Below, in pieces: positions 246 to 18,730 of a DNA stretch of 18,792 nucleotides (its first letter is position 1; each line of letters opens with the position of its first letter). The translations under genes were made by a program, and so were the position numbers. The notes under the pieces were generated by a model. The model saw only the letters and a program-made list of their open reading frames with translations, was not told the origin of the DNA and searched no databases. This stretch comes from Promethearchaeota archaeon (lineage in GTDB: Archaea > Asgardarchaeota > Lokiarchaeia > Sigynarchaeales > SOKP01). The DNA is taken from NCBI GenBank assembly GCA_014729315.1, contig WJKD01000711.1:1-18792 (forward strand), read 5' to 3'.

Positions 246-956
246 ATGTTTTATACCTCTGATAATAAGTTATACTTTAAAATAATATACTACGGAATGG
301 GCGGTTCCGGAAAAACTACTATTTTGGACACTTTATATCAAATCACCAGGACTTACAACAAAAGCATAATCCCGATCGGAGATATTACAAAAATAGATAA
401 AGCAAGCGGGGCTACACTTTATTTCGATAAAGGTCTTTTTGAATCCACCAGACAGAACCAAATTTACTATCAAATATTTACCGTTGCTGGACAAACTAGT
501 TATGCTCCACTGCGAAAGAAAGTTTATGAAGGTTCAGATGGGATTGTTTTTGTAGTTGATTCGCAAGTACATCGTTTTAAAGAAAATGTGGAATCTCTGA
601 AAGAATTAATGAAATTTTCACATAATAGTCTAATTAAGGAAATTCCCGTAGTTGTCATGTTGAATAAACAGGATTTACCTCATACAATCAGTTCTCCCGA
701 CTTTAAAGCCGTTTTAATGGATTTAAATTTATGGTACGATCCTGAAATAAAATATAATCTTTGGAATCCGAGCGTATTTGAAACATGTGCTTTATATCCC
801 CATCATAAAAATATTTTCGAGAGTTTTACTGATTGCGCTCGGAAAACTGCGTTATATCAGTTTTATGGTAAGGGAAAGGCACCTATAGATGATAATGTGG
901 TAAAAAGAATGATTAAATACGGATTCCTTAAAAAAGAACCAATTCCTACAGTATAA
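246..956 (+). CDS. MglA-like Ras-superfamily small GTPase
   Basis: A 236-residue GTP-binding switch protein. The P-loop G-x4-GKT spans residues 17-24 (GMGGSGKT). The switch I region around 53-60 (ASGATLYF) resembles the SxATxxxLFFD segment of bacterial and archaeal MglA proteins. The G3 motif is TVAGQ at 79-83, the MglA-type replacement of the usual DxxGQ. G4 is NKQD at 140-143, and G5 is probably ETCA at 179-182. The tail after residue 185 is longer than a minimal GTPase domain. There is no lipidation Cys and no membrane segment. The gene stands alone, with no adjacent roadblock/longin partner, so its effector is unknown. Asgard genomes are rich in such GTPases, and this fits a role in cell organisation or trafficking (inference). 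The fold and GTP binding are well supported; the cellular role is not. Confidence 0.9.
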   Translation: MFYTSDNKLYFKIIYYGMGGSGKTTILDTLYQITRTYNKSIIPIGDITKIDKASGATLYFDKGLFESTRQNQIYYQIFTVAGQTSYAPLRKKVYEGSDGIVFVVDSQVHRFKENVESLKELMKFSHNSLIKEIPVVVMLNKQDLPHTISSPDFKAVLMDLNLWYDPEIKYNLWNPSVFETCALYPHHKNIFESFTDCARKTALYQFYGKGKAPIDDNVVKRMIKYGFLKKEPIPTV

Positions 957-1247: not shown

Positions 1248-1727
1248 ATGACGATAATAGGAGTTCCCACATTCGGGGAAGGCGGATTAAATGCCGTACT
1301 TAATCCTCGTTTTGGAAGATGTGAAAGTTTTACGTTTGTTACTGTTGAGGATGGAAAAGTTACCGAAGTACACGCAGTTCCCAACGCAGCAGCAGGTGCC
1401 ATGGGTGGAGCAGGAATTCAAGCGGCTCAGATTTTGGGAAACAACAATGCAACAGAAGCAATAGTAGGCAATCTTGGTCCAAATGCGGCACAGTCGCTTT
1501 TATCGCTAAATATTAAGCTTCATCAAGCCCCCAATCAACAAATAACAGTTAAAGATGCTATTGACCTTTATATTAAAGGGTCTCTTCGAGAATTAAATAG
1601 TTCAAATGTCGGTGCACATTTTGGTATGGGCGCAGGCAGAGGCATGGGTGGCGGTGGTGGACGAGGTATGGGCGGTGGTAGAGGCATGGGTGGCGGCGGT
1701 GGAGGCGGCCGAGGAAGAATGCCCTAA
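1248..1727 (+). CDS. NifX/NifB-like iron-molybdenum cofactor-binding family protein with Gly/Arg/Met tail
   Basis: A 159-residue protein of the dinitrogenase iron-molybdenum cofactor-binding family (COG1433, MTH1175-like). The first 115 residues contain the family hallmarks: a central GAMGGAGIQAAQIL stretch, an IVGNLGPNA segment, and a predicted alternating beta/alpha fold. From about residue 124 the protein becomes a low-complexity tail made almost only of Gly, Arg and Met, in GRGMGGG units. Relatives of this family often carry Gly/His/Met-rich tails, thought to hold metal or cofactor. There are no nitrogenase genes in the window, so the protein more likely binds another metal-sulfur species. 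It precedes two ferredoxin-bearing MinD-type ATPases on the same strand; this three-gene grouping is common in anaerobic archaea and has no settled function. Family assignment is firm; ligand and role are unknown. Confidence 0.88.
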   Translation: MTIIGVPTFGEGGLNAVLNPRFGRCESFTFVTVEDGKVTEVHAVPNAAAGAMGGAGIQAAQILGNNNATEAIVGNLGPNAAQSLLSLNIKLHQAPNQQITVKDAIDLYIKGSLRELNSSNVGAHFGMGAGRGMGGGGGRGMGGGRGMGGGGGGGRGRMP

Positions 1728-1784: not shown

Positions 1785-2720
1785 ATGAGAACAAAACCAC
1801 AAATTATATGCGTTACTGGAGGAAAGGGTGGAACTGGAAAAACCCTCGTCGCCGTCAATATTGCAAACATGTTTGAGAACGATGGATATAAGGTATTACT
1901 TATTGATGGGGATGTTGAAAATCCTAATACTTATTTATTAATGGGGGGGAAATTAGAAAACAGAACTGAGGTTCCTTTTTTTAAACCCAAGATTATCGAA
2001 GAAAAATGTACTAAGTGCGGACTATGTGCAAAAAACTGTGCTACTCACGCCTTATTGCACGTAAAGGATTCGTATCCGATACCGATTTTAACTGTTTGTA
2101 GTGGATGCAAATTATGCTATAAAATTTGTCCAGAAGGAGCAATTGAAGCGGATTCGAAAGTAATTGGGGTTACATATTCTACGAAAATAAATAATATCTC
2201 CCTTCTAGTCGGCGAACTAACCGCTGGTGAAGCACGCTCAGCTGCAGTAGTTGACGCCCTCTTAGAGCAATTAGACGAAATTTTAGAAAATAATCCCGAA
2301 GAATTCGATGTGATCGTTTTAGATACTGCACCTGGAGCCCATTGCGATGTAGAATTACTTATAGAAAAAGCCGATGTAGTTATCCCTGTTACAGAACCTA
2401 CTAAATTTGGTAAATTAGATTTAATTAGAATTATTGAGTTAATAGAATTATTGAAAAAGGACTATAAAGCGATAGTAAACAGATCCACTTTATTAGGTTA
2501 TAAAGAGCAATTTTTAAAAGAGTTGCAAGATCAGGAGATAGAAATCTTAGGCGATATTCCCTTAGACGATAATATCGTAAAGTCTTACTGCCAAGGAATC
2601 CCTTTAATGGCAAGGAATAGCGAATTTAGTGATAGTAATGGATATAAAGCGTTTCAAGAAATATTTGTCAACTTAAAGAATTGGCTTGAAAATCATCACG
2701 AAAAAGGTGTACCAAAATGA
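1785..2720 (+). CDS. MinD/Mrp-type P-loop ATPase with inserted 2[4Fe-4S] ferredoxin domain (first copy)
   Basis: A 311-residue member of the MinD-superfamily ATPases containing an inserted ferredoxin domain (COG1149). The deviant Walker A motif GGKGGTGKT occupies residues 12-20, with the signature Lys at 14. A DGD motif at 41-43 follows, and the Walker B-like DTAPG is at 180-184. Between them are two ferredoxin cysteine sets, C75/C78/C81/C85 and C105/C108/C111/C115, each in the CxxCxxCxxxC pattern for one 4Fe-4S cluster. The stop overlaps the start of the next gene in an ATGA arrangement, showing translational coupling. Relatives (Mrp/NBP35) carry or transfer iron-sulfur clusters. The partnership with the second copy and the NifX-like protein suggests ATP-dependent metal-cluster handling, but this is inference. 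Confidence 0.9.
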   Translation: MRTKPQIICVTGGKGGTGKTLVAVNIANMFENDGYKVLLIDGDVENPNTYLLMGGKLENRTEVPFFKPKIIEEKCTKCGLCAKNCATHALLHVKDSYPIPILTVCSGCKLCYKICPEGAIEADSKVIGVTYSTKINNISLLVGELTAGEARSAAVVDALLEQLDEILENNPEEFDVIVLDTAPGAHCDVELLIEKADVVIPVTEPTKFGKLDLIRIIELIELLKKDYKAIVNRSTLLGYKEQFLKELQDQEIEILGDIPLDDNIVKSYCQGIPLMARNSEFSDSNGYKAFQEIFVNLKNWLENHHEKGVPK

Positions 2721-3649
2721 AAAAAGAAACCAAATCAATAGGTATTATATCGGGTAAAGGAGGAGTTGGAAAGACTTCGCTCACTGCAAGTTTAGCGAGT
2801 TTAGCCAAGAAAGATAAAGAAATAGAAGCGCTAATCTTGGATTGCGATGTCGACGCTCCAAATTTGGCTCTGATACTTCCCGCTCAAGAGGAAGATCACA
2901 TCAATAAGAAAGATACCTATACCACCTTAAAAGCGAAATTTCTTGAAGAAAAATGTGTGCATTGTAAACAATGTATTGACGACCAGTTTTGCGAATTTAA
3001 AGCTTTAAGCTGGAACGAGGATGACCAAGTGCCCGAGATTGATTATCTTGCTTGCGAGGGGTGCGGTGCATGTAAAGTGCTTTGTCCTGAACACGCATTC
3101 GAGATAAATGCTGTAAAAAGTGGAGAAATTATCTCCTACGAATCAAAAATAGACCTTCCTTTAGTATATGGAAAAACTCGCTTAGGAAGCACGACTTCAG
3201 GAAAATTAGTTTCCGACGCAAAACAATTCGCAAAAGAATCGGAACACTTTACAGAAAGCAATTTAATAATTATTGATGGTCCCCCTGGCATTGGATGTCC
3301 AGTTATTGCTACGGTCTCTGGATTAGATTACATAATAACGATAACAGAACCCACACCTTCAGGTTTACACGATGTTATAAGAGCGATCGAAGTAGTCCAT
3401 CAATTTGAAATCCCATTTGGAATAGTGATTAATAAATATGATATTGAAAGCTCATTTCAAGAGGAATTTAAAGATTTTATTAATAAAACGGGATATAAAA
3501 TATTAGGTCGGATTCCTTTTGATTTATCCATTCCTAAAGCTATGTCATTTGCAGAACCAGTTGTGGATTTTGCACCAGATTCAACTGCCAGTAAAGCTAT
3601 AGAAGAGATTTATGAGAATATAAAACGAGAACTATGGAATGAATCATAA
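2717..3649 (+). CDS. MinD/Mrp-type P-loop ATPase with inserted 2[4Fe-4S] ferredoxin domain (second copy)
   Basis: A 310-residue paralogue of the preceding ATPase; it starts inside that gene's stop codon (ATGA overlap of 4 bases). The deviant Walker A SGKGGVGKT is at residues 12-20, DCD at 42-44 and DGPPGIGCP at 187-195. The ferredoxin insert has C80/C83/C86/C92, where the last spacing is five residues rather than three, and a standard C113/C116/C119/C123 set. The two copies differ clearly in sequence, so this is an old duplication that probably forms a heterodimer, since MinD-type ATPases sandwich ATP between two subunits (family knowledge; heterodimer inferred). The ATPases lie directly upstream of a pterin-metal/iron-sulfur oxidoreductase operon, so a link to its maturation is possible but unproven. 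Confidence 0.9.
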   Translation: MKKETKSIGIISGKGGVGKTSLTASLASLAKKDKEIEALILDCDVDAPNLALILPAQEEDHINKKDTYTTLKAKFLEEKCVHCKQCIDDQFCEFKALSWNEDDQVPEIDYLACEGCGACKVLCPEHAFEINAVKSGEIISYESKIDLPLVYGKTRLGSTTSGKLVSDAKQFAKESEHFTESNLIIIDGPPGIGCPVIATVSGLDYIITITEPTPSGLHDVIRAIEVVHQFEIPFGIVINKYDIESSFQEEFKDFINKTGYKILGRIPFDLSIPKAMSFAEPVVDFAPDSTASKAIEEIYENIKRELWNES

Positions 3650-3970: not shown

Positions 3971-4441
3971 ATGGAACTATACGAGTATCTTCCTAAAACT
4001 AATTGTAAAAAATGTGGGAAACCAACTTGCATGGCATTTGCGTTGGATTTACTAAAAGGCGTAGTAAAGATTGAGGAGTGCACACCTCTCGTAGAGGAAG
4101 AGAAGTATAAAGAAAAATACGAAGCGCTGAAAGAATTAATTGGTGGAGAGGAGGGAAAAGAAAAAGAACTAAGAATTAATGTCGATCCCGACGAATGCGA
4201 TGGATGTGGAATTTGTGTCACGGTTTGCCCTGTAAACGCGAGATACTGCCCTCCCACACTTAGTGGAAAAGCGCCAGACCATCCCCCTGATAAACGACAG
4301 TTATTTGTTGTCAAAGATGGAAAATGTGAGCTATTACATATCGAACATTGTAGAAGAATTGCCGCTCAAGGAAGAGAGCGAGAATGCAGGGTGTGTGAAA
4401 CATATTGTCCTCGCGATGCTATTAAGATAGAATATGTTTAA
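3971..4441 (+). CDS. Iron-sulfur protein: N-terminal Fes (CdhD-like) domain plus ferredoxin domain
   Basis: A 156-residue electron carrier. Residues 9-37 form a Fes-type 4Fe-4S motif (C12, C15, C20, C37 in a CxxCGxPTC context), as found in corrinoid iron-sulfur proteins and methyltransferase activators. A charged linker at about 42-68 follows. Next is a ferredoxin motif C76/C79/C82/C86-Pro and a less regular second set, C139/C142/C146-Pro, whose fourth ligand could be C119 or C127. It sits 42 bases before fwdB on the same strand, so it probably feeds electrons to the pterin-metal subunit, in place of the FwdF/FwdG polyferredoxins of methanogens (inference). The assignment to iron-sulfur electron transfer is firm; the exact partner is not. 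The reverse-strand frame over this gene is a shadow. Confidence 0.85.
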   Translation: MELYEYLPKTNCKKCGKPTCMAFALDLLKGVVKIEECTPLVEEEKYKEKYEALKELIGGEEGKEKELRINVDPDECDGCGICVTVCPVNARYCPPTLSGKAPDHPPDKRQLFVVKDGKCELLHIEHCRRIAAQGRERECRVCETYCPRDAIKIEYV

Positions 4442-4483: not shown

Positions 4484-5785
4484 ATGAAAAGAATACCGTG
4501 TACAGGATGTTCGCTACTATGCGACGACATAATGGTTAATAGTAGCGGATTATTCATTGACGAAGTCATTGGTGCGTGCTTAAAAGGTAAAGAAAAGTTC
4601 GATCAATTAACATCTAATAATCGTTTTCTAAATCCGATGCTAAGAAAAGGTGGTGAACTCAAGAAGGTAAGTTGGGACGAAGCTTTAGAAAAAGCGGCAG
4701 AAATTCTAAAATCGTCGTTAAAACCCATTTTATATGGATTTTCCACTTCTAGCTGTGAGGCTCAAGTAAAAGCTATTGAATTAGCGAAAACGGTTAATGG
4801 TTTTATAGACTCGAATTCATCTATCTGTCAAGGTAATGTTTTAGATGCCGCTAAGGAAACGGGAATAACTTTAACATCAATTGCAGAAATTATTAATAAA
4901 GCAGACGTCCTCGTTTATTGGGGATTTAACGGTGCGGAATCAATTCCGAGACTCACGAATAAAGCTGTTTTTAGTAGAGGTAAATTTCGAATGACTGGTC
5001 GGGAGATAAAGACCCTTATTGTAATAGATCCTGTTAAAACTGCATCTTTTAATGTTATGGGAGCTAAAGATATTGCACTTAATATTGAACCCGATAAGGA
5101 TTTAGAACTTATTAATATCCTAACTCAAGAATGTTGTAAAGCAGGAAATATACCTGACGAGGGTGCCGCTGGACTTGATAAAGATGATATTAAAAGATTA
5201 TTAGTGAATTTGGTAAATTCTGAAAATGTAGTTATTTTTATTGGTCAAGGCTTATTAGATCCAAAAAATCATTTTCAAGTCGCTAGAAACTTATTGAAAA
5301 TGGTTGAAGTTATGAATGAGAAGCACGAAAAAGGCAGAGTCTCTGTAGTGTTGACTGGTGGTCATTATAACATGGCAGGATTTGACCATGTAGCATTATC
5401 GATGACCGGTAAAGAGCATAATATTCAATTTTCGGAACACAAGCTTACAGATTCACAGTATAATCTAATTTCGAAGATCAAAAACGAAGATTTTGATTGT
5501 TCGTTAATAGTTGGCACGGATCCTATTTCTCATTTTCCTTTCGAATTAAGCAAAAAATTAACATCAAAACCGATAATCCTAATTGATAACAAAAAATCTG
5601 CAACCTCTGAAATAACCGATGTTTTATTACCTTCAGCTATAACGGGAATAGAATGCCGGGGAACCGCAGTTCGATTAGATCAAGTGCCAGTAGAACTTCA
5701 GAAATTATTGGAACCTGCAAATAATGTCCCCTCAGACGAGAAAATATTATCTCAAATAATAAATAAGCTAAAAGATAATAAATAG
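4484..5785 (+). CDS. fwdB: Formylmethanofuran dehydrogenase subunit B-like (tungsten/molybdenum-pterin) protein with altered active-site neighbours
   Basis: A 433-residue homologue of FwdB/FmdB, the subunit that reduces CO2 to formate at a bis-pterin tungsten or molybdenum centre. An N-terminal 4Fe-4S site is C6, C9, C13 and C32. The metal-ligand cysteine is C115 in the NSSICQG motif; it is Cys and not selenocysteine. Typical family blocks follow: VYWGFN (144-149), IDPVKT (181-186), GTDP (344-347) and the C-terminal GIECRGTAVR (388-397). Two features are odd. The residue after C115 is Gln, where formate dehydrogenases and FwdB usually have His. The motif expected as RGHYN begins with Gly (G292-G293-H294-Y295-N296). 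By memory of the family these positions are the catalytic His and Arg. The gene belongs with fwdD and fwdA downstream. Homology is certain; the usual activity is doubtful. Confidence 0.88.
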   Translation: MKRIPCTGCSLLCDDIMVNSSGLFIDEVIGACLKGKEKFDQLTSNNRFLNPMLRKGGELKKVSWDEALEKAAEILKSSLKPILYGFSTSSCEAQVKAIELAKTVNGFIDSNSSICQGNVLDAAKETGITLTSIAEIINKADVLVYWGFNGAESIPRLTNKAVFSRGKFRMTGREIKTLIVIDPVKTASFNVMGAKDIALNIEPDKDLELINILTQECCKAGNIPDEGAAGLDKDDIKRLLVNLVNSENVVIFIGQGLLDPKNHFQVARNLLKMVEVMNEKHEKGRVSVVLTGGHYNMAGFDHVALSMTGKEHNIQFSEHKLTDSQYNLISKIKNEDFDCSLIVGTDPISHFPFELSKKLTSKPIILIDNKKSATSEITDVLLPSAITGIECRGTAVRLDQVPVELQKLLEPANNVPSDEKILSQIINKLKDNK

Positions 5786-5796
5786 CGGTGTAAAAA

Positions 5797-6171
5797 ATGG
5801 AATTGTTGTTAAATACAATAAGATTAATTGATTATGATCAAGTAAAAGAATTCGCCTTGGGAGATGAGAGTTCTCTCAAAGAAAAATTGGCGATTGCATT
5901 TCTCAATCCAGAGGACTTTAACGAGCTTGGGCTGGTTCCAAGCTTAAGAATCAAGATCTGGAACGATTTCGGAGAAATAATAGTGGAACAAGAAACAGAC
6001 GAAGATATTCCTAAAGGGATGATCACAATGCCCGTATCTATTTGGTCAAACCAAATCACCAAGGTTGAAAATAAGGGAGTTAAGTATAAAAACATTAAGG
6101 TCAAAGTCGAGCCAACAAGAGATCAAGTTATGGATTTTAAAGAATTATTAAAAAAAATTAAACAGAGTTAG
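5797..6171 (+). CDS. fwdD: Formylmethanofuran dehydrogenase subunit D-like, pterin dinucleotide-binding domain
   Basis: A 124-residue homologue of FwdD, the small beta-barrel subunit that completes the binding site for the molybdopterin guanine dinucleotide in FwdB. It starts 11 bases after the fwdB stop and ends in a TAG overlapping the first possible start of fwdA. Recognisable features are the N-terminal LNTIRLIDYDQ segment, the AIAFLNPEDFNELGL stretch (32-46, typical of this fold), and MPVSIWSN at 78-85. The last motif replaces the MPxGPWAN common in the family, so the Gly-Pro pair is changed to Ser-Ile. The length is normal for FwdD. Together with the changes in FwdB and FwdA this supports a divergent complex. 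Family call is good; exact cofactor is unknown. Confidence 0.82.
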   Translation: MELLLNTIRLIDYDQVKEFALGDESSLKEKLAIAFLNPEDFNELGLVPSLRIKIWNDFGEIIVEQETDEDIPKGMITMPVSIWSNQITKVENKGVKYKNIKVKVEPTRDQVMDFKELLKKIKQS

Positions 6172-6176
6172 TGTTG

Positions 6177-7856
6177 ATGCGAAAAATGGAGAAAATTTTA
6201 ATCAAAAACGGTCTGGTATACGACCCCTTGAACAATATAGAGGGAGAGGTCATAGATATTCACGCCGAGAATGGACAAATTGTTGAAAAGTTTTCAAATC
6301 AAAATGATGTTCGCGAAATCGACGCAAAGGGAAAAACAGTAGTACCAGGAGCAATTGATATACACGCTCATATTGCGTCTCAACAAGTAAATTGGGCGCG
6401 TCTTTTAGGTACTAAAAATGAAGCTTTCAAGAAATTATGGAAAGGGATTACGCTTGATGATATAGCGCGAGATTACGTTTCCAACGGCTACACTTTCATC
6501 GTTGAAGCGAATATTTTTCCTTCCTTATCAAATTTCGCAATATTTAATTTTCAGCAGCTTCCCGTATTAGACAAGGCAATGCTTTTAAATGTCAGTAATT
6601 TATGGGCTTTGGAAGACGAGTATCAACGCAAAAAGACGGAGGATGCCGCGGGATTTATTTCTGACCTGTTAACAAAAACTAAAGCGTTTGGATTAAAAGT
6701 ATATAATCCTTTTGAAAACGAGAAATGGAATTTTAATGTCTTAAGAGAAGATTTAGCAGAGAAAGGAACATTATACAACTTTTCTGCCGTGGATGTATAT
6801 AAAATTTTAGCAGAAACCAACGAAATGTTAAAGCTTCCTCATTCCATTCACGCACATGTCGAAGGCTACGAGAGTCAGCAAGGGAAAACAAACTTAGAGC
6901 TAATTTTAAACGAGATTAAATCGTTAAGTCTTAATAATCCTTCTAATACGAATGGAAGTCGATCTCAGATTTTTCATTTAGCCCATGCTTCAGCCTATAA
7001 TCTTGACGGTGAAAATGATACTCTTATTAAATTTTTTAATAGCAATTCTGAATTTGATCTTGATCTAGGAGTGCTCTCTTTCAACGAAATTAATCCTCTC
7101 ATAACTTCTGACCGAAGATTATTTAAACACTTGTCAAACCAAAGTCCAGGAGAGGGTAATAAAAAGATAATAAAATCCGCGGTCGAGTTTGAAGGAGATT
7201 ATTTTGTATCATTACGATCTTTTAGTAAAAAGAATAAATCTCACTGCGTTCAATGGGCGAATTCGCTATTATTAGCTCTCAAAATAACGAATAAATGGCA
7301 AATACAGCTTTCCTATAACTTTCCTAACTATAGTCATATAAACAATAGTGCAGATATTGCGGCAATCTTAACCAGTAGCCGAGCTAGAGAAGATTTTATG
7401 AAGGAAATGACCGATGATTTTTCCAATAAGAATGCGATCAAAGGAGATCTACAAAATATGACATTTAATGAATACATAATCGTTTCAAGAGCAAGTCCTG
7501 CTAAATCACTCGGACTTGGACACATAAAAGGAAATTTCGGAGTAGGTGCTGACGCAGACATAAATATTATAGATATAGACGCACAAAATTTAGATCTTGA
7601 GAAAAACTACTCAGAGTTAAAATCGGCTCTTTCGGATATAAATTATGTCTTAAAAGGCGGAAATGTCGTAAAGCAAAACGATAAGATCGATCTAAGCGCC
7701 CACGGTCAAATATTCTGGTCAAAGGGAAAATATTCACATAAGGATTTTCGAAGTTTGCTCCAAAAAAAGAAAGAATTTTATCAAAAATATGGTTCTTTCT
7801 TTTACGATTCACTCAAATCTTCCGTGAATCAAGATCTCTTAAGAGAAATTACTTAA
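6177..7856 (+). CDS. fwdA: Formylmethanofuran dehydrogenase subunit A-like amidohydrolase with altered catalytic motif
   Basis: A 559-residue homologue of FwdA, the amidohydrolase-fold subunit that condenses formate with methanofuran at a binuclear zinc site. I use the ATG at 6177. A GTG at 6171 that overlaps the fwdD stop is possible, and an ATG at 6186 would give the MEKILIKNG start most like relatives. Apparent metal ligands are kept: HAH at 63-65, K174 in GLKVYNP, HAH at 225-227 and H270 in HLAH. GVGADADINIID near the end is also typical. The motif expected as TTD-x-PN is SYNFPN, so the catalytic Asp is Asn (N381) and the next residue is Phe. The ETGxGxVP-like loop before it is also lost, replaced around 343-352 by VSLRSFSKKN. 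No fwdC follows; the next gene is on the other strand. Homology is clear; normal activity is questionable. Confidence 0.85.
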   Translation: MRKMEKILIKNGLVYDPLNNIEGEVIDIHAENGQIVEKFSNQNDVREIDAKGKTVVPGAIDIHAHIASQQVNWARLLGTKNEAFKKLWKGITLDDIARDYVSNGYTFIVEANIFPSLSNFAIFNFQQLPVLDKAMLLNVSNLWALEDEYQRKKTEDAAGFISDLLTKTKAFGLKVYNPFENEKWNFNVLREDLAEKGTLYNFSAVDVYKILAETNEMLKLPHSIHAHVEGYESQQGKTNLELILNEIKSLSLNNPSNTNGSRSQIFHLAHASAYNLDGENDTLIKFFNSNSEFDLDLGVLSFNEINPLITSDRRLFKHLSNQSPGEGNKKIIKSAVEFEGDYFVSLRSFSKKNKSHCVQWANSLLLALKITNKWQIQLSYNFPNYSHINNSADIAAILTSSRAREDFMKEMTDDFSNKNAIKGDLQNMTFNEYIIVSRASPAKSLGLGHIKGNFGVGADADINIIDIDAQNLDLEKNYSELKSALSDINYVLKGGNVVKQNDKIDLSAHGQIFWSKGKYSHKDFRSLLQKKKEFYQKYGSFFYDSLKSSVNQDLLREIT

Positions 7857-7884: not shown

Positions 7885-9369
7885 TTATCTGCTAATTTTT
7901 ATTTTCAAAATAGAGTGTTTTGGTAGATTCAAGTTAAAAGACTTACCGTCAGCGTTTATATCAAATTTACGAGGAAAAACTTCTTTAGGGTTTTCAAAAC
8001 TATTATAATCTCTTAAATTCTGTGAAGTTAATATTACTCCCGAAGATGATTCAATTTCAAATTTTTCCATCTCTATTAAAACATCTAGATCGTTTTTTGG
8101 GTCTCTATTTATCAAGAATAATAAATATCGTTTTTCACTCATTTTTATTGCTGAAACATCCAAAACAAGTGCGTTTGAGTTTAATAAATTAGGACAGCTG
8201 ACGTTGGTTTCTACAGAAATCCCTCCAGCGCAAGATCGATACAATTTATACACATAATAAGAAGATCTAAGTAGAACTCCGCGATTGTCTGCGTAAATTA
8301 AACCTCTCGTGTTTACATTCGGAGAATAATGTGCCATAGTAATAAAATTTGCGTTTCGAATAATTATATTTAAAAACCCTGCAGTGTAAAGAGCATGTGC
8401 TAAGTCATATTGTTCCGGTAAAGAATTTTTTACTATATCTTGTTCTTCCCAACCGTATTCGTTCCATTCATCAATCGATAATTTAATTATGTCTTTTCTT
8501 CCGATCTCATTACAAAATTTTTTTATTAAGTGAAGTGTTTTTTTTATTAATCTTTCAACTTTTCTGAGGTCAAGAGTTGCCTTTTTGTGAGAAATAGGCT
8601 GCTTTGAATATCCGATTTGATAATAATGATGCCACGAGATTAGTTCTGCATTTCTTGTAAAATCTTCAATCGAAAACAATTGTTTATTCCATTTTCTTGT
8701 ATGATTTGGGTCCTCACCAACAAATATAATTTTGATATCCGGATCTGCTTTTTTCATTGCTCTCATAACCTTCAGGGAGTCTTTTGCGTATTTAGCACCA
8801 TCGGTATAATAACCTATTTGCCATGGCCCCCAACATTCGTTTCCAATACCCCACCATTTCACATTTAGTGGCTCTACATATCCCGCTGAAGCTCTCAATT
8901 TTGCTTCAGGTCCTTCTCTATTATTACAATATTTGACCCACGAAGCCGCTTCTTCGGCAGTAGGATTTGATTTACTTTTTCCTACTCCAACACAAATGAG
9001 TGGTTCGGCTCCTAATCTTCTGCAGTGTTCTACAAATTCTGTAGTCCCAAAATGATGTGATTCTATTTCTCCCCAATGAGGATTCTGCAAAGTTTTTCTT
9101 TCTTTTCTAGGTCCAGCTCCCCATTGCCAATGATAACCGCTCGTATAATTTCCACCTGGCCATCTAATAATTGTTGGTTTCAATTCTTTTAATGCTTTTT
9201 CTACATCAAGGCGGAATCCTTTCATATCTGAGAATTTTCCTCCCTCTTCAAATATACCCCCGTAGATTTGTCTTTGAAAGTGCTCTATAAAGTGTCCAAA
9301 AACGAACGAGTTGATATATCCTATATGATGCTGATCCTTGACCTTAATTCTCGAAATCATATTATTCAT
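7885..9369 (-). CDS. abfA: Alpha-L-arabinofuranosidase, GH51 family, intracellular
   Basis: A 494-residue GH51 enzyme that releases terminal alpha-L-arabinofuranosyl residues from arabino-oligosaccharides. The (beta/alpha)8 barrel shows RWPGGN at 69-74, FGTTEF at 107-112 (usually FGTDEF), the acid/base Glu E178 in WGIGNE, and the nucleophile E301 in DEWN. A C-terminal beta domain follows from about 380. There is no signal peptide, so it acts in the cytoplasm on imported oligosaccharides. The length is typical. The start at 9369 has a second ATG three codons in (9360), and either is possible. It is convergent with fwdA and divergent from the 7TM gene. No transporter or arabinose pathway gene lies nearby, so it looks like an isolated, perhaps horizontally acquired gene, though its AT-rich codon use matches its surroundings. 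Very secure family call. Confidence 0.93.
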   Translation of the reverse strand: MNNMISRIKVKDQHHIGYINSFVFGHFIEHFQRQIYGGIFEEGGKFSDMKGFRLDVEKALKELKPTIIRWPGGNYTSGYHWQWGAGPRKERKTLQNPHWGEIESHHFGTTEFVEHCRRLGAEPLICVGVGKSKSNPTAEEAASWVKYCNNREGPEAKLRASAGYVEPLNVKWWGIGNECWGPWQIGYYTDGAKYAKDSLKVMRAMKKADPDIKIIFVGEDPNHTRKWNKQLFSIEDFTRNAELISWHHYYQIGYSKQPISHKKATLDLRKVERLIKKTLHLIKKFCNEIGRKDIIKLSIDEWNEYGWEEQDIVKNSLPEQYDLAHALYTAGFLNIIIRNANFITMAHYSPNVNTRGLIYADNRGVLLRSSYYVYKLYRSCAGGISVETNVSCPNLLNSNALVLDVSAIKMSEKRYLLFLINRDPKNDLDVLIEMEKFEIESSSGVILTSQNLRDYNSFENPKEVFPRKFDINADGKSFNLNLPKHSILKIKISR

Positions 9370-10688: not shown

Positions 10689-10747
10689 AATAATCAATAT
10701 CTCGAAATTGATTGAGAGTGATTATATTGTTTTATACTTTATTTTTA

Positions 10748-10752
10748 GAGGT
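10748..10752 (+). promoter_or_regulatory. Shine-Dalgarno site setting the MttB-like start
   Basis: GAGGT lies six bases before the ATG at 10759, the same spacing as at the NifX-like gene. It supports 10759 over an in-frame ATG at 10708, which would add 17 hydrophobic residues not seen in this family. Confidence 0.6.
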
Positions 10753-10758
10753 TATTCT

Positions 10759-12267
10759 ATGAAATTGAACCAGTTTAAGGTGTTATCACAAGAGGAGATT
10801 GAAAAAATACATTCTGCGACTCTTGAATTATTACGCAATGTGGGTGTGAAGATAGATTGCAAAAAGACACGAAAATTGCTAGAAGATTATGGAGCCAACG
10901 TAGATCACGATACTAACTTTGTTAAATATCCCGAATCGCTGGTTATAGAAAAGCTCAGACAAGTTCCTAGTTCTTTTAAATTATATGGTCCTGATGGAAA
11001 CTCTAACATTGAAGTAAACCTAAATAGCACTCATTTCCTACCCATAGGGACGCCTGTTAAAATATACGCTCCCGAAAAGAATAAAGGAGTGAGAAAGTCA
11101 ACTTTAGAAGATACTATAAAGCAAATGCGATTAGTAGATCAATCAGAATTTTTAAGTTGTAGCACCATCGATTTTTGGCCAAATGACATAAAGTATACCA
11201 CAATTCACGCTCAATGTCTTTATCAATGGGTGCATAATTGTCGAAAGCCTTACGGTTTCGGGTGTTTTGGAAAAATGGTTAGCCAAGATGCTATGAATAT
11301 GACTGCAATAATTGCCGGAGGGGAAGATGAGATAAGAAGGCATCCAAGAATGTTTGGTATCTTTAATCCTACAAGCCCTTTACATTTGCCCAAATTAATG
11401 ACAAACGGTCTTGCCATCTTTGCTGAATATGAACACCCGTTAATTATCGCTCCTGAAGCTCTTGGGGGGACTTCCGCGCCCGTGACCTTAGCGGGATTGA
11501 TTACGCAAACCAACGCCGAAATATTGAGTACTATAATTCTTGCACAAATACATAACCCAGGTACTCCAGTAATGTATGGAACTGTTTCTCATACAACGGA
11601 TATGAGGTCTGGAAATTCTGCTATAGGAGGTATCGAAACGGGATTGATTACCGCGGGAATGGCGCAGCTCGCTCATTATTACAATATACCTTCTCGTTCT
11701 TTAGGAGCGGTAACAGATTCGAAATGTTTAGATCTTCAAAATGGAGTTGAACGCTTTCAAACTTTGCTTTTTGCGGCTTTATCTGGAATAAATTTTATTA
11801 CTTGCGCTGGAAATTATGAGGTAACCTTGTCAGGTTCTTTTGAGCTTACAACAATCGATAACGAATTGGCTGGTATGGTATTGCGTGCGATCGAGGGAAT
11901 TGAAATATCGGACGAAACGATTGGACTAGATGTTATTAGTAAAGTGGCTCAAAGTAAAGAAAAAGGTGTCAATTATTTGAGCGAACGGCACACACGTAAT
12001 TATATGAAAAAAGAACTTTTTATGCCGCATCTCTTTGATCGAGATAGAAGAGCTACTTGGCGTAAAAAAGGGTCTAAAAACATTATTCAAAGCGCAAAAG
12101 AAAAGGTTGAAAAGATTTTAAAAAATTTTTCGGAATATCAGTTAGATAACGATATTGAAAAGGATCTCAGAAATTATATGAAAAATGTTGAAGAGAGGAG
12201 CTACGAATATTATTCAATAGCCGAGGGTCTCACTCGAAGGGATGTTTCATTGCCAGACGAGGTTTAG
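10759..12267 (+). CDS. MttB-family (trimethylamine methyltransferase-like) corrinoid methyltransferase without pyrrolysine
   Basis: A 502-residue homologue of MttB (COG5598), a TIM-barrel protein that moves a methyl group from a quaternary or tertiary amine to a corrinoid protein. Family blocks include the N-terminal LSQEEIEKIHSATLELLRNVG (residues 10-30), GTSAPVTLAG, a YGTVSHTTDMRSG stretch, and GAVTDSKCLDLQNGVE, the region where true trimethylamine enzymes place the UAG-encoded pyrrolysine. No internal TAG occurs; the only TAG is the terminal stop. It therefore belongs to the non-pyrrolysine subgroup that includes the glycine betaine methyltransferase MtgB, and substrates could be betaine, carnitine or another methylated amine. 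The corrinoid protein and the second methyltransferase are not in the window. The start at 10759 gives the normal family length. Confidence 0.88.
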   Translation: MKLNQFKVLSQEEIEKIHSATLELLRNVGVKIDCKKTRKLLEDYGANVDHDTNFVKYPESLVIEKLRQVPSSFKLYGPDGNSNIEVNLNSTHFLPIGTPVKIYAPEKNKGVRKSTLEDTIKQMRLVDQSEFLSCSTIDFWPNDIKYTTIHAQCLYQWVHNCRKPYGFGCFGKMVSQDAMNMTAIIAGGEDEIRRHPRMFGIFNPTSPLHLPKLMTNGLAIFAEYEHPLIIAPEALGGTSAPVTLAGLITQTNAEILSTIILAQIHNPGTPVMYGTVSHTTDMRSGNSAIGGIETGLITAGMAQLAHYYNIPSRSLGAVTDSKCLDLQNGVERFQTLLFAALSGINFITCAGNYEVTLSGSFELTTIDNELAGMVLRAIEGIEISDETIGLDVISKVAQSKEKGVNYLSERHTRNYMKKELFMPHLFDRDRRATWRKKGSKNIIQSAKEKVEKILKNFSEYQLDNDIEKDLRNYMKNVEERSYEYYSIAEGLTRRDVSLPDEV

Positions 12268-12296: not shown

Positions 12297-13529
12297 TTAA
12301 TAGGTAAAACCTTTTAATTTCTGTACAGTAGTATAAATGTTCCTTCCGCCTCTTCGCAAGTAATTCATAGCCTCCTCGATACCCTCAACGGTGAGATTAA
12401 ACATTGGAACGATACTAGAGATGATTTTTCTTGTCCAAGGTTGCCATTGTTCTTTTATAAGTTCAGGATTTAGCCAGACAACATTATTTTTAAAATGATT
12501 GGCAATTTCTCGAATATAATAAATACCCGGCATCTCGTTTCGATGATAATAATAAATCGAGCCGTAACGTTCCGTAAGTTCGTACGAAGCCATCGCAGCG
12601 TCTCCAACCATAACCACCTTATACTTATTGTCGAATTTTCGTAGAAAATCGTCAAATTCTATGGCTTCGTCTGGATTTCTCTGAGCATTAAAGAACAATT
12701 GTTCGTAGACGCAATTATGGAAGTAATAATACTTAAAGTCTTTCCAATGAGACATATTGTTTGCTGCTGAGAAGAGTAAGTTAACTAAGTGCGCGTAGGG
12801 AGTCATACTTCCTCCGACATCCATTAATAATATGAGTTTTACGTTGTTTTTCCTTCGTTTTTCGAAAAAGAGTTCGATGTCTCCACCATTTTTTGCCGTC
12901 TTGTCAATTGTTTTATCAATATTTAATTCGTCCTGTCTTCCAATCTCTTCCAACTTCCTGAGACGCTTTAACGCAACTTTAATTTGTCGCGTATCCAAAA
13001 CAACATCTTTTCGATAATCTTGAAATATCCTTTTTTGAGCAATTTGAATTGCCATGCGCATTCCCGAGGTTCCTCCGACCCTCATACCCATAGGATTCTG
13101 CCCAGAATGCCCAAATTGAGATATGCCTTGCGTTCCAATCCATTGATTGCCAAAATTATGCTCATCATCTTGTTTCTTCATCAATTCTTCGAATTGCTTC
13201 TGCATCTCTTCGATATCGAATTCAAAATTAAGAAATTCTTGAAATCCATCAGGTAATTCTTCGGGTTCGAAATCTTTTTCAAGCCAGTCCCAGATTTCTT
13301 GCTTAATATCTTCGGGAAATTTAAGCATAGCATCTTTGAAAAAATTAGCAAAAGCAATATCGTACACATCAAAATGGTGTTCGTTTTTACAGAGTATACT
13401 TCTCGAAATATAATAAAATTCGACCATATTATGTATAAGTCCTTCGTTTAGCGCTTGCATTAAGGTCATATACTCGGTAATACTTACGGGCAATCTTTTT
13501 TTGAGGTAATAGAAAAATTCTACAAACAT
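12297..13529 (-). CDS. CoxE-like von Willebrand factor A domain protein
   Basis: A 410-residue VWA protein of the CoxE type. The first 120 residues are helical and include an acidic Glu-rich run (about 86-120). A Gly/Met-rich linker lies at about 125-158. The VWA domain starts near residue 230 with LILLMDVGGSM (233-242), a MIDAS DxGxS motif (D237, S241), and a further metal-site Asp at D310 in VGDAAM. The C-terminal half has aromatic stretches such as YYYFHNC (267-273). VWA proteins of this kind work with MoxR AAA+ ATPases as chaperone pairs that insert metals or remodel complexes, as CoxD/CoxE do for carbon monoxide dehydrogenase. The matching MoxR gene lies 4.3 kb upstream on the same strand rather than adjacent. 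It is convergent with the MttB-like gene. Its client is unknown. Confidence 0.88.
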   Translation of the reverse strand: MFVEFFYYLKKRLPVSITEYMTLMQALNEGLIHNMVEFYYISRSILCKNEHHFDVYDIAFANFFKDAMLKFPEDIKQEIWDWLEKDFEPEELPDGFQEFLNFEFDIEEMQKQFEELMKKQDDEHNFGNQWIGTQGISQFGHSGQNPMGMRVGGTSGMRMAIQIAQKRIFQDYRKDVVLDTRQIKVALKRLRKLEEIGRQDELNIDKTIDKTAKNGGDIELFFEKRRKNNVKLILLMDVGGSMTPYAHLVNLLFSAANNMSHWKDFKYYYFHNCVYEQLFFNAQRNPDEAIEFDDFLRKFDNKYKVVMVGDAAMASYELTERYGSIYYYHRNEMPGIYYIREIANHFKNNVVWLNPELIKEQWQPWTRKIISSIVPMFNLTVEGIEEAMNYLRRGGRNIYTTVQKLKGFTY

Positions 13530-14909: not shown

Positions 14910-16298
14910 CTATCCTATAGCTTTTAGTGTCCAAATCGTTAATTTCTGCATATCCATTTTACCGTCATTACAAATTAATGATAATTTACAATCCAGACTT
15001 TTTGGAAAAGTCCTAAACGTAAAACAGAATTCTTTATTAATATACACTTCAACGACAGAGTGGTCTATGAAAATTTTTATATTTAATCTGTGCAAATCAC
15101 TTAAATCGGTTAGGTAGCCTTTTTCGCGTCCCGCTGTAATTATTTTTTTATAAAAATCGAAATTTATTTTATCAGTCTGATTATCTTGGCTACTTTTGAA
15201 CAGATCAATTGTAAAATATTTTGAGTTTCTTCTTTCGAGAACTAATTCAATTTCTAAACAACATCCGCTCGTAGAAAAGTCAATTCCCTCCTCATCGATA
15301 GTTATATTTTTGACACTGAATTCATTTTCTCGAAGCTTCTGTAGCTCCGACACTGGAGTAAAAGTCAATTTTTCTCCATCAGGACTTAAATTTAAAATTC
15401 GAGGAAGACTCATACAACCGCTCCAACCTCCAGAACCACCCCCTTTAATCCAACCTAACATGATTATCCGATCTTTATTATCAACAAATATGTTTGGAGC
15501 ATAAAATGTCTTTCCATGGTCTAAAATATTCCATTTATCTGGAGTAAATTCAAAATTTTTATAAGAACCAAGAGCATAAATAACTTTTCTATGAGGTGAT
15601 ACAATAAGGGCATATTTATTCTCGAATCTTAAGAAGACAGGACACTCCCAATTCTTTCCCGTTTTCCTATTTCCTTCACAAAGGATATTAACAAATTCCC
15701 AATCTTTCAAATTTGTGGATTTATAAAGAAGGACAATCCCTCCCCTTTTTTTATGGACATGTCCTCCTAAAATCATAAAATAGCTCCCATTCTCTTTCCA
15801 TAAATATGGATCTCTCCAATCCCTAATTTTTAAATCTTTGTGAACATCAAGAGTAAGTATTGGATTATTTTCGAATTTTTTCCAAGTGGTCATATTGTCC
15901 GTACTGATGGCAAGCCATTGTTCAGCGCCCGTAGCGGGTAATTTATTTGGACCGATGCTTGTATAAATTATTGAAGGAACTCCATTGTGAATTATACAAT
16001 TTCCGGAAAAGCAGTGCTCTTCCCCTTTTTCTAAAGAAGGAGCTAAAGCAATCGGTAAATGTTCCCAATGGATCAAATCAGGACTTTTCGCGTGGCCCCA
16101 GTGTATCTTACCCCACTGGTCTCCGTATGGATTGTGTTGATAGAATATATGATATTCGCCCTTGTAATGCATAGGCGCGTTAGGATCATTCATCCAATAT
16201 GCGGGAGGTAAGAAGTGGTATTTAGGCCTATAAGAACATTCAGAAGCGATCCTTTTACCTTCCTCAATGCTTTTCATCGCAGATTCAATTTTATCCAT
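14910..16298 (-). CDS. GH32 beta-fructosidase (invertase / sucrose-6-phosphate hydrolase type), intracellular
   Basis: A 462-residue glycoside hydrolase family 32 enzyme that hydrolyses beta-fructofuranosides such as sucrose, sucrose 6-phosphate or fructans. The five-bladed propeller shows the nucleophile D38 in WMNDPN (35-40), FSGNC at 97-101, the transition-state Asp D163 in WRDP (161-164), and the acid/base E218 in WECP (217-220). FYAPN at 265-269, GW at 282-283 and SLPR at 297-300 complete the family pattern. A C-terminal beta-sandwich with FIDHSVVEVY-like sequence follows. There is no signal peptide, so it acts in the cytoplasm. A TATA-like TTTAAA at 16322-16327 suggests a leaderless transcript. 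GH32 is uncommon in archaea and suggests acquisition from bacteria. A divergent MFS gene lies next to it, but the transporter looks like a drug-type exporter rather than a sugar importer. Confidence 0.92.
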   Translation of the reverse strand: MDKIESAMKSIEEGKRIASECSYRPKYHFLPPAYWMNDPNAPMHYKGEYHIFYQHNPYGDQWGKIHWGHAKSPDLIHWEHLPIALAPSLEKGEEHCFSGNCIIHNGVPSIIYTSIGPNKLPATGAEQWLAISTDNMTTWKKFENNPILTLDVHKDLKIRDWRDPYLWKENGSYFMILGGHVHKKRGGIVLLYKSTNLKDWEFVNILCEGNRKTGKNWECPVFLRFENKYALIVSPHRKVIYALGSYKNFEFTPDKWNILDHGKTFYAPNIFVDNKDRIIMLGWIKGGGSGGWSGCMSLPRILNLSPDGEKLTFTPVSELQKLRENEFSVKNITIDEEGIDFSTSGCCLEIELVLERRNSKYFTIDLFKSSQDNQTDKINFDFYKKIITAGREKGYLTDLSDLHRLNIKIFIDHSVVEVYINKEFCFTFRTFPKSLDCKLSLICNDGKMDMQKLTIWTLKAIG

Positions 16299-17852: not shown

Positions 17853-18707
17853 TTATACAGGAAATTTTGCCTTGGAGAGGGCCATTTCCAAATCCTTCTC
17901 TTTTTTTATCAAGACTCCCAAAAACGGAACCCCTTTGCGTAATTCTTCAATAGTTATTCCACTTTTTAACAAGACACCTATCCAGTCGAGAAGTTCTGAA
18001 GTAGAAGGTAATTTTCTCATTTTTGTTATTGTGCGTAAAGCGTAGAAATGTTTAAGGCACTGATCCAAAAGGTTTTTCTTGAGATTTGGATAATGTAGAT
18101 TACAAATTTCTGTCATAAAGTCCTTGTCGGGAAATTCTATATAGTGGAAAACGCAACGTCTTAGAAACGCATCAGGTAACTCCTTCTCGTTATTCGAGGT
18201 AATAATAACAATTGGTCGATGTTTCGCTTTTACAAACTCTTTCGTTTCCTTAATGTAAAATTCCATTACATCTAATTCTTGTAATAAATCATTAGGAAAT
18301 TCGATATCTGCTTTATCGATTTCGTCAATCAGGAGGACAACTTGTTCGTCTGAATCAAACGCTTCTCCTAAGGGTCCTAAGGTAATATAATCCTCTATGT
18401 TATTTACATTTCTATCTTCGCATCCAAACCTACTGTCGTTCAATCTCTGAACTGTATCATACATATAACACCCATCTATTGCCTCAGTGGTCGATTTAAT
18501 GTTCCAAATTATTAAGCGTTTGTCCAGAGCTTCAGCAATAGCGTGTGCAAGTAAGGTTTTTCCTGTTCCCGGTTCTCCCTTCACTAATAAGGGCCTCCCT
18601 AAAGCAATAGAAACATTTACTATATTTCGTAATTGCGGGTCAGCGATATATCGCACCTTGTCAGTTTGGACATTACCTTTAAATTGGTCAAAATCTGTAT
18701 TGCTCAT
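17853..18707 (-). CDS. MoxR-family AAA+ ATPase
   Basis: A 284-residue MoxR-type AAA+ ATPase. I chose the ATG at 18707 over an in-frame TTG at 18716, because the TATA box at 18731-18739 then lies at the distance seen for leaderless genes. Walker A GEPGTGKT is at 44-51, Walker B LLIDEID at 125-131, sensor 1 in ITSNN at 169-173, and the Arg-finger segment LRRC at 182-185. The C-terminal helical lid includes a LPSTSELLDW stretch, typical of the family. MoxR ATPases act with VWA-domain proteins to insert cofactors or mature enzyme complexes. The expected VWA partner (CoxE-like, 12297-13529) is on the same strand but 4.3 kb downstream. No carbon monoxide dehydrogenase or other known client is in the window. 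Confidence 0.9.
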   Translation of the reverse strand: MSNTDFDQFKGNVQTDKVRYIADPQLRNIVNVSIALGRPLLVKGEPGTGKTLLAHAIAEALDKRLIIWNIKSTTEAIDGCYMYDTVQRLNDSRFGCEDRNVNNIEDYITLGPLGEAFDSDEQVVLLIDEIDKADIEFPNDLLQELDVMEFYIKETKEFVKAKHRPIVIITSNNEKELPDAFLRRCVFHYIEFPDKDFMTEICNLHYPNLKKNLLDQCLKHFYALRTITKMRKLPSTSELLDWIGVLLKSGITIEELRKGVPFLGVLIKKEKDLEMALSKAKFPV

Positions 18708-18730
18708 ATGAATCAAAAATTATTGTAAAA

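What the first reader, a model, noticed from the sequence alone, without database searches (positions are those of the whole stretch)
7305..7337. FwdA homologue with the catalytic Asp motif TTD-x-PN changed to SYNFPN
Seen: the apparent metal ligands (two HAH motifs, the Lys of GLKVYNP, the His of HLAH) remain, but the Asp expected before x-PN is Asn at 7317-7319, and the ETGxGxVP-like loop upstream is replaced. Family knowledge: that Asp is the proton-handling residue of the amidohydrolase site. Inference: formyl transfer to methanofuran may be lost or altered. Paired with the FwdB changes, this suggests co-evolved divergence of the whole complex, possibly towards a new C1 or other carbonyl substrate.
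Basis: partly seen in the sequence, partly recalled or inferred. Interest (0 to 1): 0.72.

Follow-up and report, generated by a model that had tools for sequence, protein, structure and literature searches.

The report
Loki archaeal formylmethanofuran-dehydrogenase-like paralogue complex
Loki archaea carry, usually beside their ordinary CO2-fixing formylmethanofuran dehydrogenase, a conserved second version in which both reaction centres have lost formate-handling residues but kept their metal holders, so it probably does a different, still unknown job.

Summary
The FwdA-like protein (6186-7856 +) has Asn (AAC, 7317-7319) where FwdA has its catalytic Asp385; the other metal ligands are kept. 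It is neither sequencing error nor decay: Asn is in 120 of 120 listed homologues and 52 of 53 locus rows (one gap), with dN/dS 0.10-0.22 in the 14 closest pairs. The gene ends a conserved Lokiarchaeial operon FeS-FwdB'-FwdD'-FwdA' (complete in 47 of 52 loci) without its own FwdC. Of 51 such genomes, 39 also hold a canonical FwdA, some only in part. FwdB' keeps its tungsten-ligand Cys (50 of 50) but lost Arg288 (50 of 50) and mostly His119 (46 of 50); FwdA' lost the gatekeeper Lys64. The FeS-FwdB' pair belongs to an Asgard-wide paralogue family in which Arg288 is gone in 100 of 100 and the tungsten Cys in 34 of 50 non-Loki members. It co-occurs with CODH/ACS, within 10 kb of cdhA in 21 genomes. 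Best reading: a neofunctionalised, FeS-wired Fwd-like complex tied to the acetyl-CoA pathway. Substrate unknown. Co-evolved divergence is supported; the new-substrate claim is untested.

The parts
6186..7856 (+). FwdA' (FwdA-like amidohydrolase-fold subunit)
7317..7319 (+). Asn378 (AAC) in place of catalytic/metal-ligand Asp385 of M. wolfei FwdA
6384..6386 (+). Gln67 in place of the proposed formate gatekeeper Lys64 of M. wolfei FwdA
   Evidence: Q 51, E 2 of 53 rows; canonical K 37 of 37; role of Lys64, called speculative there, from PMC11656701
6363..6371 (+). H60-x-H62 metal-ligand motif (M. wolfei H57, H59)
   Evidence: 53 of 53 rows
6696..6698 (+). Lys171, carboxylysine position (M. wolfei K178)
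   Evidence: 53 of 53 rows
6855..6857 (+). His224 metal ligand (M. wolfei H231)
   Evidence: 53 of 53 rows
6984..6986 (+). His267 metal ligand (M. wolfei H271)
   Evidence: 53 of 53 rows
5797..6171 (+). FwdD' (pterin-binding subunit homologue)
   Evidence: NF042908 61.9 bits (cut-off 175); 5t5i_D E 2.9e-13
4484..5785 (+). FwdB' (tungsten/molybdenum-pterin subunit homologue)
   Evidence: TIGR03129 358 bits over the cut-off 327.8; 5t5i_B E 7.1e-79
4826..4831 (+). Cys115 (tungsten-ligand Cys118 kept) and Gln116 (replaces His119)
   Evidence: Loki paralogues: Cys 50 of 50; Gln 45, His 4, Leu 1
5357..5359 (+). Gly292, replaces Arg288 of M. wolfei FwdB
   Evidence: Loki paralogues: Gly 45, Thr 4, Ser 1 of 50; canonical Asgard Arg 18 of 18
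3971..4441 (+). FeS protein: PF04060 Fe-S domain plus 4Fe-4S domain(s), partner of FwdB'
   Evidence: 103 of 105 FeS ORFs in the loci held have an FwdB-like ORF within 600 bp on the same strand
1785..3649 (+). two MinD/ParA-type ATPases with inserted ferredoxin domains (1785-2720, 2717-3649)
   Evidence: together with the NifX-like gene upstream on the same strand in 14 of 52 loci; membership of the working unit is inferred
1248..1727 (+). NifX/ORP-like protein (PF02579)
   Evidence: see the ATPases; membership is inferred

Best explanation
The window holds a dedicated Lokiarchaeial paralogue of formylmethanofuran dehydrogenase, made of FeS protein, FwdB', FwdD' and FwdA' and lacking its own FwdC. 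Shown by sequence: it is conserved, under purifying selection, usually present beside a canonical Fwd set, and has lost residues thought to handle formate at both catalytic sites (FwdB His119 and Arg288; FwdA gatekeeper Lys64 and proton-abstracting Asp385) and part of the methanofuran pocket. It keeps the tungsten-ligand Cys, the FwdB cluster Cys, and the four His and the Lys that hold the dinuclear metal site. Inferred: it no longer makes or cleaves formyl-methanofuran from or to CO2. The W/Mo-pterin site of FwdB'D' does a two-electron reaction on a neutral or less anionic substrate, electrons pass through the FwdB' cluster and the FeS protein, and the Asn-containing dinuclear site of FwdA' binds or polarises a carbonyl-type group without the usual Asp base. 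Because the FeS-FwdB pair co-occurs with CODH/ACS across Asgard genomes and stands in an operon-like run with cdhA in other lineages, the complex most likely serves the carbonyl (CODH/ACS) branch of the acetyl-CoA pathway rather than the methyl branch.
For: Asn 120 of 120 and 52 of 53. Loki FwdB': Cys118 50 of 50, Arg288 0 of 50, His119 4 of 50 (row L015 was first counted as canonical and moved to this group from then on), four cluster Cys 49 of 49. FwdA': Lys64 0 of 53, Leu235->Tyr 53 of 53, Phe274 0 of 53. Operon order complete in 47 of 52 loci; FwdC found in 3 loci only, as part of a neighbouring canonical set. dN/dS 0.10-0.22 in the 14 closest pairs. FwdA' is one clade, SH-aLRT 100 (quick method); Loki FwdB' is one clade, 100/99 (18 of 50 Loki rows used). 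Canonical FwdA in 39 of 51 FwdA' genomes (counted by hand, partial copies included); of the other 12, 9 still have FwdC. The complete chromosome G001 has canonical FwdD-B-C together and a canonical FwdA with Asp elsewhere. FeS and cdhA in 227 genomes: 91 both, 12 FeS only, 19 cdhA only, 105 neither; among 144 FwdB-positive genomes 91/12/14/27, Fisher p 2.3e-10. In the G185-G215 block FeS-FwdB is followed by a CooC/MinD-like ATPase, CdhA (1085 bits, cut-off 781.3) and CdhB (110.1, cut-off 101.2), one representative of each scanned. Roles of the residues: PMC11656701 sections 2.2 and 2.3.
Against: No substrate or activity is known. Four basal Loki FwdB' keep His119 and two FwdA' rows have Glu at Lys64. 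Paralogue clade I (9 rows) keeps Asp385, so Asn is not a property of all paralogues. In 34 of 50 non-Loki paralogues the tungsten Cys is lost, which suggests that the family's shared role may be electron transfer, not catalysis. In no Loki genome examined is the operon near cdhA (by reading; in G001 at 65 kb and 2.08 Mb of 3.34 Mb). 12 genomes have the FeS gene without cdhA and 19 the reverse, and Fisher tests ignore kinship. One locus (L012) has FwdA' without the other three genes although the contig runs on. Two of the 51 genome matches to FwdA' read through stop codons (G148 one, G102 two). 8 of the 120 listed homologues bear source names of Thor-, Hermod- or Hodarchaeota, so the restriction to Lokiarchaeia rests on the genome sets.
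Confidence: 0.5

Rival explanations
1. Scaffold and electron wire: the paralogue complex is not an enzyme of its own. FwdB' and the FeS protein carry electrons (as NuoG does in complex I) between HdrA/polyferredoxin and CODH/ACS, and FwdA' is a structural pseudo-amidohydrolase with a metal site kept for folding.
For: Four cluster Cys of FwdB 99 of 99 in paralogues, while Cys118 is lost in 34 of 50 non-Loki members and Arg288 in all. HdrA2-like and FwdF-like polyferredoxin genes beside the pair in 32 and 26 non-Loki loci by clustering, one representative of each scanned. Clade II FwdA has degenerate ligands (H57N in 2 of 4, K178E in 1 of 4).
Against: In Loki the pterin side is fully kept: Cys118, Gly120, Gly289, His290, Asn292, Gly295, Gly305 and Glu388 in 50 of 50. 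FwdD' and all His/Lys ligands of FwdA' are kept too, with new invariant residues (Glu229, Glu177, Arg310 in 53 of 53), which a bare scaffold would not need.
Confidence: 0.28
2. It is still a formylmethanofuran dehydrogenase with an altered mechanism or specialised for one direction; Asn binds metal and another acid (for example the new Glu229 near His224) takes over the base role.
Against: Formate handling is lost at four positions in two subunits, methanofuran-pocket residues are changed, FwdC is missing from the operon, and a canonical set is at hand in most of these genomes.
Confidence: 0.12
3. Sequencing error, relaxed selection or decay.
For: Only that two of 51 genome matches contain stop codons, which MAG errors or contig ends could explain.
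Against: the window's own frame is open.
Confidence: 0.01
4. Asn378 is deamidated to Asp after translation, so the canonical site is restored.
For: Only that Asn deamidation exists (recalled).
Against: Asn-Phe/Tyr-Pro is not a favoured deamidation context (recalled), and the other formate-handling residues are changed as well.
Confidence: 0.02

Closest known systems
Formylmethanofuran dehydrogenase (Fwd/Fmd; M. wolfei 5t5i, E. thermophilum 8rja)
   Same: Homologous A, B and D subunits; same FwdA fold; four His and the Lys of the dinuclear site; tungsten-ligand Cys; FwdB cluster Cys
   Different: Asp385->Asn, Lys64->Gln in A; His119->Gln, Arg288->Gly in B; no FwdC in the operon; an FeS protein with a PF04060 domain instead of FwdF/G; under the NCBIfam cut-offs for A and D, over it for B
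Formyltransferase/hydrolase complex Fhc of methylotrophic bacteria (6s6y)
   Different: In Fhc the B subunit has lost the metallopterin, with no FwdD-type subunit, and the hydrolase half is kept (PMC11656701 section 2.2; PMC10100899 passages). Here the A-subunit Asp is lost, and the pterin-metal ligand and cluster Cys of B are kept
NuoG/Nqo3 of complex I
   Same: Molybdopterin-oxidoreductase-fold subunit kept after loss of the metal site, as suggested for non-Loki FwdB paralogues; that Nqo3 lost the cofactor is taken from PMC10100899 passages, that it keeps Fe-S clusters is recalled
   Different: Different family and partners; Loki FwdB' keeps the metal-ligand Cys
Isoaspartyl dipeptidase D285N (1ybq)
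   Same: An amidohydrolase-fold entry with an Asp->Asn mutation and bound substrate by its title; that D285 is the same strand-8 Asp and that the mutant is nearly inactive is recalled
   Different: Engineered mutant, other family, not part of a redox complex

Membership tests
Formylmethanofuran dehydrogenase (FMD) | A subunit with dinuclear site of four His, one Asp and a carboxylysine (PMC11656701) | tested here: not met
   His and Lys 53 of 53, Asp 0 of 53 (Asn 52, one gap)
Formylmethanofuran dehydrogenase (FMD) | Proposed gatekeeper Lys64 in subunit A | tested here: not met
   Q 51, E 2 of 53; canonical K 37 of 37
Formylmethanofuran dehydrogenase (FMD) | B subunit with W/Mo-ligand Cys/Sec | tested here: met
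   Cys 50 of 50 Loki paralogues
Formylmethanofuran dehydrogenase (FMD) | B subunit with His119 and Arg288 at the metal site | tested here: not met
   Loki: Arg 0 of 50, His 4 of 50; the window has Gln and Gly; canonical Asgard 18 of 18 have both
Formylmethanofuran dehydrogenase (FMD) | FwdC beta-helix subunit bridging A and B | tested here: not met
   No FwdC in the DNA held for 49 of 52 FwdA' loci; the 3 with one (L034, L035, L037) have it in an adjacent canonical D-B-C set. A FwdC encoded elsewhere could still be shared
Formylmethanofuran dehydrogenase (FMD) | FwdD homologue | tested here: met
   NF042908 61.9 bits, below its cut-off of 175; 5t5i_D E 2.9e-13
Formylmethanofuran dehydrogenase (FMD) | Curated cut-offs TIGR03121 (A) and TIGR03129 (B) | tested here: inconclusive
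   A 299 of 392.75 not reached; B 358 over 327.8
Formylmethanofuran dehydrogenase (FMD) | Formyl-methanofuran : acceptor activity | not testable with these tools
   needs protein
Fhc complex | B subunit without metallopterin | tested here: inconclusive
   Sequence proxy only, and it speaks against: metal-ligand Cys and surrounding glycines kept 50 of 50 in Loki
CODH/ACS-linked module | Physical or operon link to CODH/ACS | tested here: inconclusive
   Within 10 kb of cdhA in 21 of 91 genomes with both, read by hand, none of them in the Loki block; co-occurrence Fisher p 2.3e-10 among FwdB-positive genomes, kinship ignored

The most novel reading that the evidence does not exclude
Asgard archaea evolved from formylmethanofuran dehydrogenase a second complex for the CODH/ACS branch. 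In Lokiarchaeia it became a new metalloenzyme with a W/Mo site (His->Gln, Arg->Gly) and an Asn-type dinuclear site that together act on a neutral C1 or carbonyl compound such as CO or an aldehyde-level intermediate. Its metal centre may be matured by the neighbouring NifX/ORP-like protein, ferredoxin-ATPases and CoxE-like VWA protein. In other Asgard lineages the same family decayed to an electron wire.
Probability: 0.12. Interest if true: 0.85.

Novelty: new variant of a known kind. Interest (0 to 1): 0.62.

Why it matters
Genome surveys can read fwdA and fwdB in Asgard archaea as evidence for CO2 fixation or formyl-methanofuran oxidation; the last Asgard common ancestor, for example, was inferred to have formylmethanofuran dehydrogenase as part of its Wood-Ljungdahl pathway (PMC10307638, one passage seen). 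Where the FeS-FwdB pair is present (103 of 227 genomes), one of the fwdB-like genes is this paralogue, which lacks a residue that the reaction is thought to need, so such counts need a check of FwdB Arg288 and FwdA Asp385. If the complex has a new substrate, it would be a second chemistry built on a two-site tunnelling enzyme. If it is a CODH/ACS electron wire, it would tell how these close relatives of the eukaryotic host lineage feed electrons to the acetyl-CoA pathway.

Tried and rejected
Own genome: none is held, so 'does this very genome have a canonical set' could not be answered; it was answered for 51 relatives instead, many of them incomplete assemblies.

Sequencing error and decay: rejected. 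A missing FwdB' in the chromosome G002 (L051): FwdA' there lies next to a run of N in the assembly, so it says nothing.

The genome scan used two peptide patterns taken from FwdA' itself, so it could not find other FwdA kinds; those came.

First AlphaFold job with 26 rows gave pLDDT 58 and was not used; the second with 81 rows gave 92.1. The model has no metals or partners, so site geometry was not tested.

Idea that the FeS protein is private to the Asn-type complex: rejected; it is in 105 of 227 Asgard genomes at E<=1e-20 (two of these, G005 and G007, are short partial hits in proteins of about 480 residues and were dropped, leaving 103).

Spread outside Asgard archaea was not settled: one search lists 120 of 783 FeS homologues, and where a source names the organism it is an Asgard group or just 'archaeon'.

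MttB methyltransferase as a pathway clue: MttB-like genes occur near several operons but not consistently; not pursued. NifX-like plus ATPases upstream: 14 of 52 loci only.

Print: searches of the open library showed in their lists (some capped: 25 of 58, 15 of 37, 10 of 16, 10 of 19) no title or abstract start on an Asp->Asn FwdA, a FwdC-less paralogue or an FeS-FwdB pair in Asgard archaea. I read sections 7 and 8 (headed 2.2 and 2.3) whole and some passages of PMC11656701, and passages only of PMC11493965, PMC10100899 (12 of 22 places), PMC10307638, PMC11291895 and PMC11237513; the rest are listings. Subscription papers are mostly outside this library.

Rows dropped: one search used FwdB ORFs over 330 residues and 250 bits, without L054 (same place as L043) and identical rows; this left out three FeS-adjacent fragments (L132, L134, L140). 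L015 was first counted as canonical because its FeS gene is off the contig, then moved to the Loki paralogues. L115 and L121 have the FeS gene without an adjacent FwdB. One canonical FwdB row has Asp at a cluster-Cys column (Cys12), not looked into. The FwdB tree used 18 of the 50 Loki rows. In one search, three partial FwdA' fragments (G139, G153, G149) were not counted.

Full report
Observation. The window carries FeS protein (3971-4441), FwdB-like (4484-5785), FwdD-like (5797-6171) and FwdA-like (6186-7856) genes in one run on the + strand. In the FwdA-like protein the Asp of FwdA before x-P-N (M. wolfei Asp385) is Asn378, codon AAC at 7317-7319. Its other metal ligands are present.

Is it real and general? 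Of 438 proteins with E<=1e-3 the best 120 are listed; all 120 have Asn, 116 as N-x-P-N and 4 as N-F-P-H. A pattern scan of the species-genome collection gave 51 loci, all titled Lokiarchaeota or Lokiarchaeia. In 227 genomes of the Asgard phylum, 51 genomes have a full or near-full FwdA' at 811 bits or more; apart from three partial fragments the next class falls to 366 bits. Two of the 51 matches contain stop codons (G148, G102). 8 of the 120 proteins bear Thor-, Hermod- or Hodarchaeota names from their sources, which I did not resolve. Nei-Gojobori dN/dS is 0.10-0.22 for the 14 closest pairs. FwdA' is one clade with SH-aLRT 100. The change is therefore fixed in a broad clade and kept by purifying selection.

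The complex. The order FeS-FwdB'-FwdD'-FwdA' is complete in 47 of 52 loci (51 loci plus the window). In three others the contig starts inside the operon, one abuts an assembly gap, and one (L012) has FwdA' alone. FwdC is absent from the DNA held for 49 of 52 loci; in the other three it belongs to a canonical D-B-C set next door. Canonical FwdA is present, at least in part, in 39 of the 51 FwdA' genomes, and 9 of the remaining 12 still have FwdC (counted by hand). The complete chromosome G001 has canonical FwdD-FwdB-FwdC together and a canonical FwdA with Asp elsewhere. So FwdA' is an extra copy, not a replacement.

Both active sites are changed, and selectively. PMC11656701 (sections 2.2 and 2.3 read whole) says that four His, an Asp and a carboxylysine hold the dinuclear site, that the Asp is proposed to take the proton from the methanofuran amine, that Lys64 may keep formate in the cavity, and that the equivalent of His119 was proposed to gate substrate in formate dehydrogenases. 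In FwdA' the His and Lys are kept in 53 of 53, Asp is Asn in 52 of 53 (one gap), Lys64 is Gln in 51 and Glu in 2, Leu235 of the methanofuran pocket is Tyr in 53 of 53, and Phe274 is Ala or Ser in 49 of 53 and Phe in none. In FwdB' the tungsten Cys is kept in 50 of 50 and Arg288 in none (Gly 45, Thr 4, Ser 1); His119 is Gln in 45, Leu in 1 and kept in 4 basal rows. Residues around the metal (Gly120, Gly289, His290, Asn292, Gly295, Gly305, Glu388) are kept 50 of 50, while His157, His160 and Arg187, at least 95% conserved in canonical FwdB, are replaced in 47, 50 and 46 of 50. That Arg288 binds formate, as in formate dehydrogenases, is recalled, and so is its name as an active-site residue. The pattern, cofactor side kept and several basic residues of the other side lost, argues for a changed substrate in Loki; which residues face the substrate was not tested on a structure.

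A wider family. An alignment of the FeS partner finds it in 105 of 227 Asgard genomes at E<=1e-20, 103 after dropping two partial hits. In the loci that I held, 103 of 105 FeS ORFs have an FwdB-like ORF within 600 bp on the same strand. Of 99 such FwdB with usable length (49 Loki, 50 other), plus L015, none keeps Arg288; all 99 keep the four cluster Cys; 34 of the 50 non-Loki ones have lost the tungsten Cys; 18 of 18 canonical Asgard FwdB read Cys-His...Arg. In a tree of 87 rows the 19 canonical rows lie on one side of a branch with 100/99 support, and the 18 Loki paralogue rows form one group with 100/99. The trees are unrooted, some branches are long, and the alignment at the lost site in the most divergent rows is uncertain. 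FwdA partners of the paralogue type are seen in Loki, in G074-G077 (Asn in 3 of 4, with degenerate ligands), in G175-G178 and, apart from the FeS-FwdB pair, in G078-G081 and G160 (Asp kept), and in G004.

Link to CODH/ACS. In the G185-G215 block the FeS-FwdB pair is often followed by a CooC/MinD-like ATPase, CdhA (12 non-Loki loci by clustering) and CdhB (8), with HdrA2-like (32) and FwdF-like polyferredoxin (26) genes mostly divergent from it; one representative of each cluster was named by NCBIfam. cdhA is in 110 of 227 genomes. FeS and cdhA: 91 both, 12 FeS only, 19 cdhA only, 105 neither; among the 144 FwdB-positive genomes 91, 12, 14, 27 (Fisher p 2.3e-10, kinship ignored). Of the 39 FwdB-positive genomes without cdhA, 27 lack the pair, many of them in the patchy G181-G217 block. 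By reading, 21 genomes have both within 10 kb. In Loki they are not close (G001: 65 kb and 2.08 Mb on 3.34 Mb), though 45 of the 51 FwdA' genomes have cdhA (by hand).

Explanation. Shown: a conserved, selected Fwd paralogue without its own FwdC and with changes at both sites, part of an Asgard family that co-occurs with CODH/ACS. Inferred: it no longer performs formyl-methanofuran chemistry; electrons run through the FwdB cluster and the FeS protein; the Loki branch acts on another, less anionic substrate. Open: substrate, presence of W/Mo and zinc, and whether the role is catalytic or that of an electron wire.

Verdict. A real and interesting variant of a known enzyme kind; first-reader inference partly supported; interest 0.62.

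Noticed in passing
FeS neighbourhoods of non-Loki Asgard genomes (L086-L087, L095-L098, L106-L131, L136-L156): FwdB paralogues beside the FeS protein keep the four cluster Cys, yet 34 of 50 have lost the tungsten-ligand Cys (Gly, Glu, Thr, Val and others), a NuoG-like fate inside the Fwd family.
   Followed up: partly
L122, L141-L152, L155 (G185-G215 block): FeS-FwdB stands at the head of a cooC-like/cdhA/cdhB run in many of these loci, with hdrA2-like and fwdF-like polyferredoxin genes divergent from it.
   Followed up: partly
L095-L098 (G074-G077): A second FwdA paralogue group with Asn at the Asp385 position in 3 of 4 and broken metal ligands (H57N in 2, K178E in 1), in a D-A-FeS-B operon.
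   Followed up: partly
12297-13529 (-) and 17853-18716 (-): CoxE-like VWA protein (PF05762) and an AAA ATPase. Genes of the VWA cluster lie in 23 of 52 loci. Of four genomes searched, G001's only PF05762 hit over the cut-off lies about 1.2 kb from FwdA', G119 and G110 have hits within 10 kb (G110 also a stronger one elsewhere), and in G099 the only one is about 180 kb away. Such pairs act in metal-centre maturation elsewhere (recalled); plain synteny is not excluded.
   Followed up: partly
10708-12267 (+): MttB-family methyltransferase (TIGR02369 407 bits, cut-off 525) with an uninterrupted frame, so no in-frame amber codon; MttB-like genes also lie near several relatives' operons.
   Followed up: no
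7885-9369 (-) and 14910-16298 (-): Glycoside hydrolases in the same window: alpha-L-arabinofuranosidase-like and GH32, which may point to plant-polysaccharide use.
   Followed up: no
246-956 (+): Arf/Ras-like small GTPase gene (PF00025 62 bits); such genes are typical of Asgard archaea (recalled).
   Followed up: no
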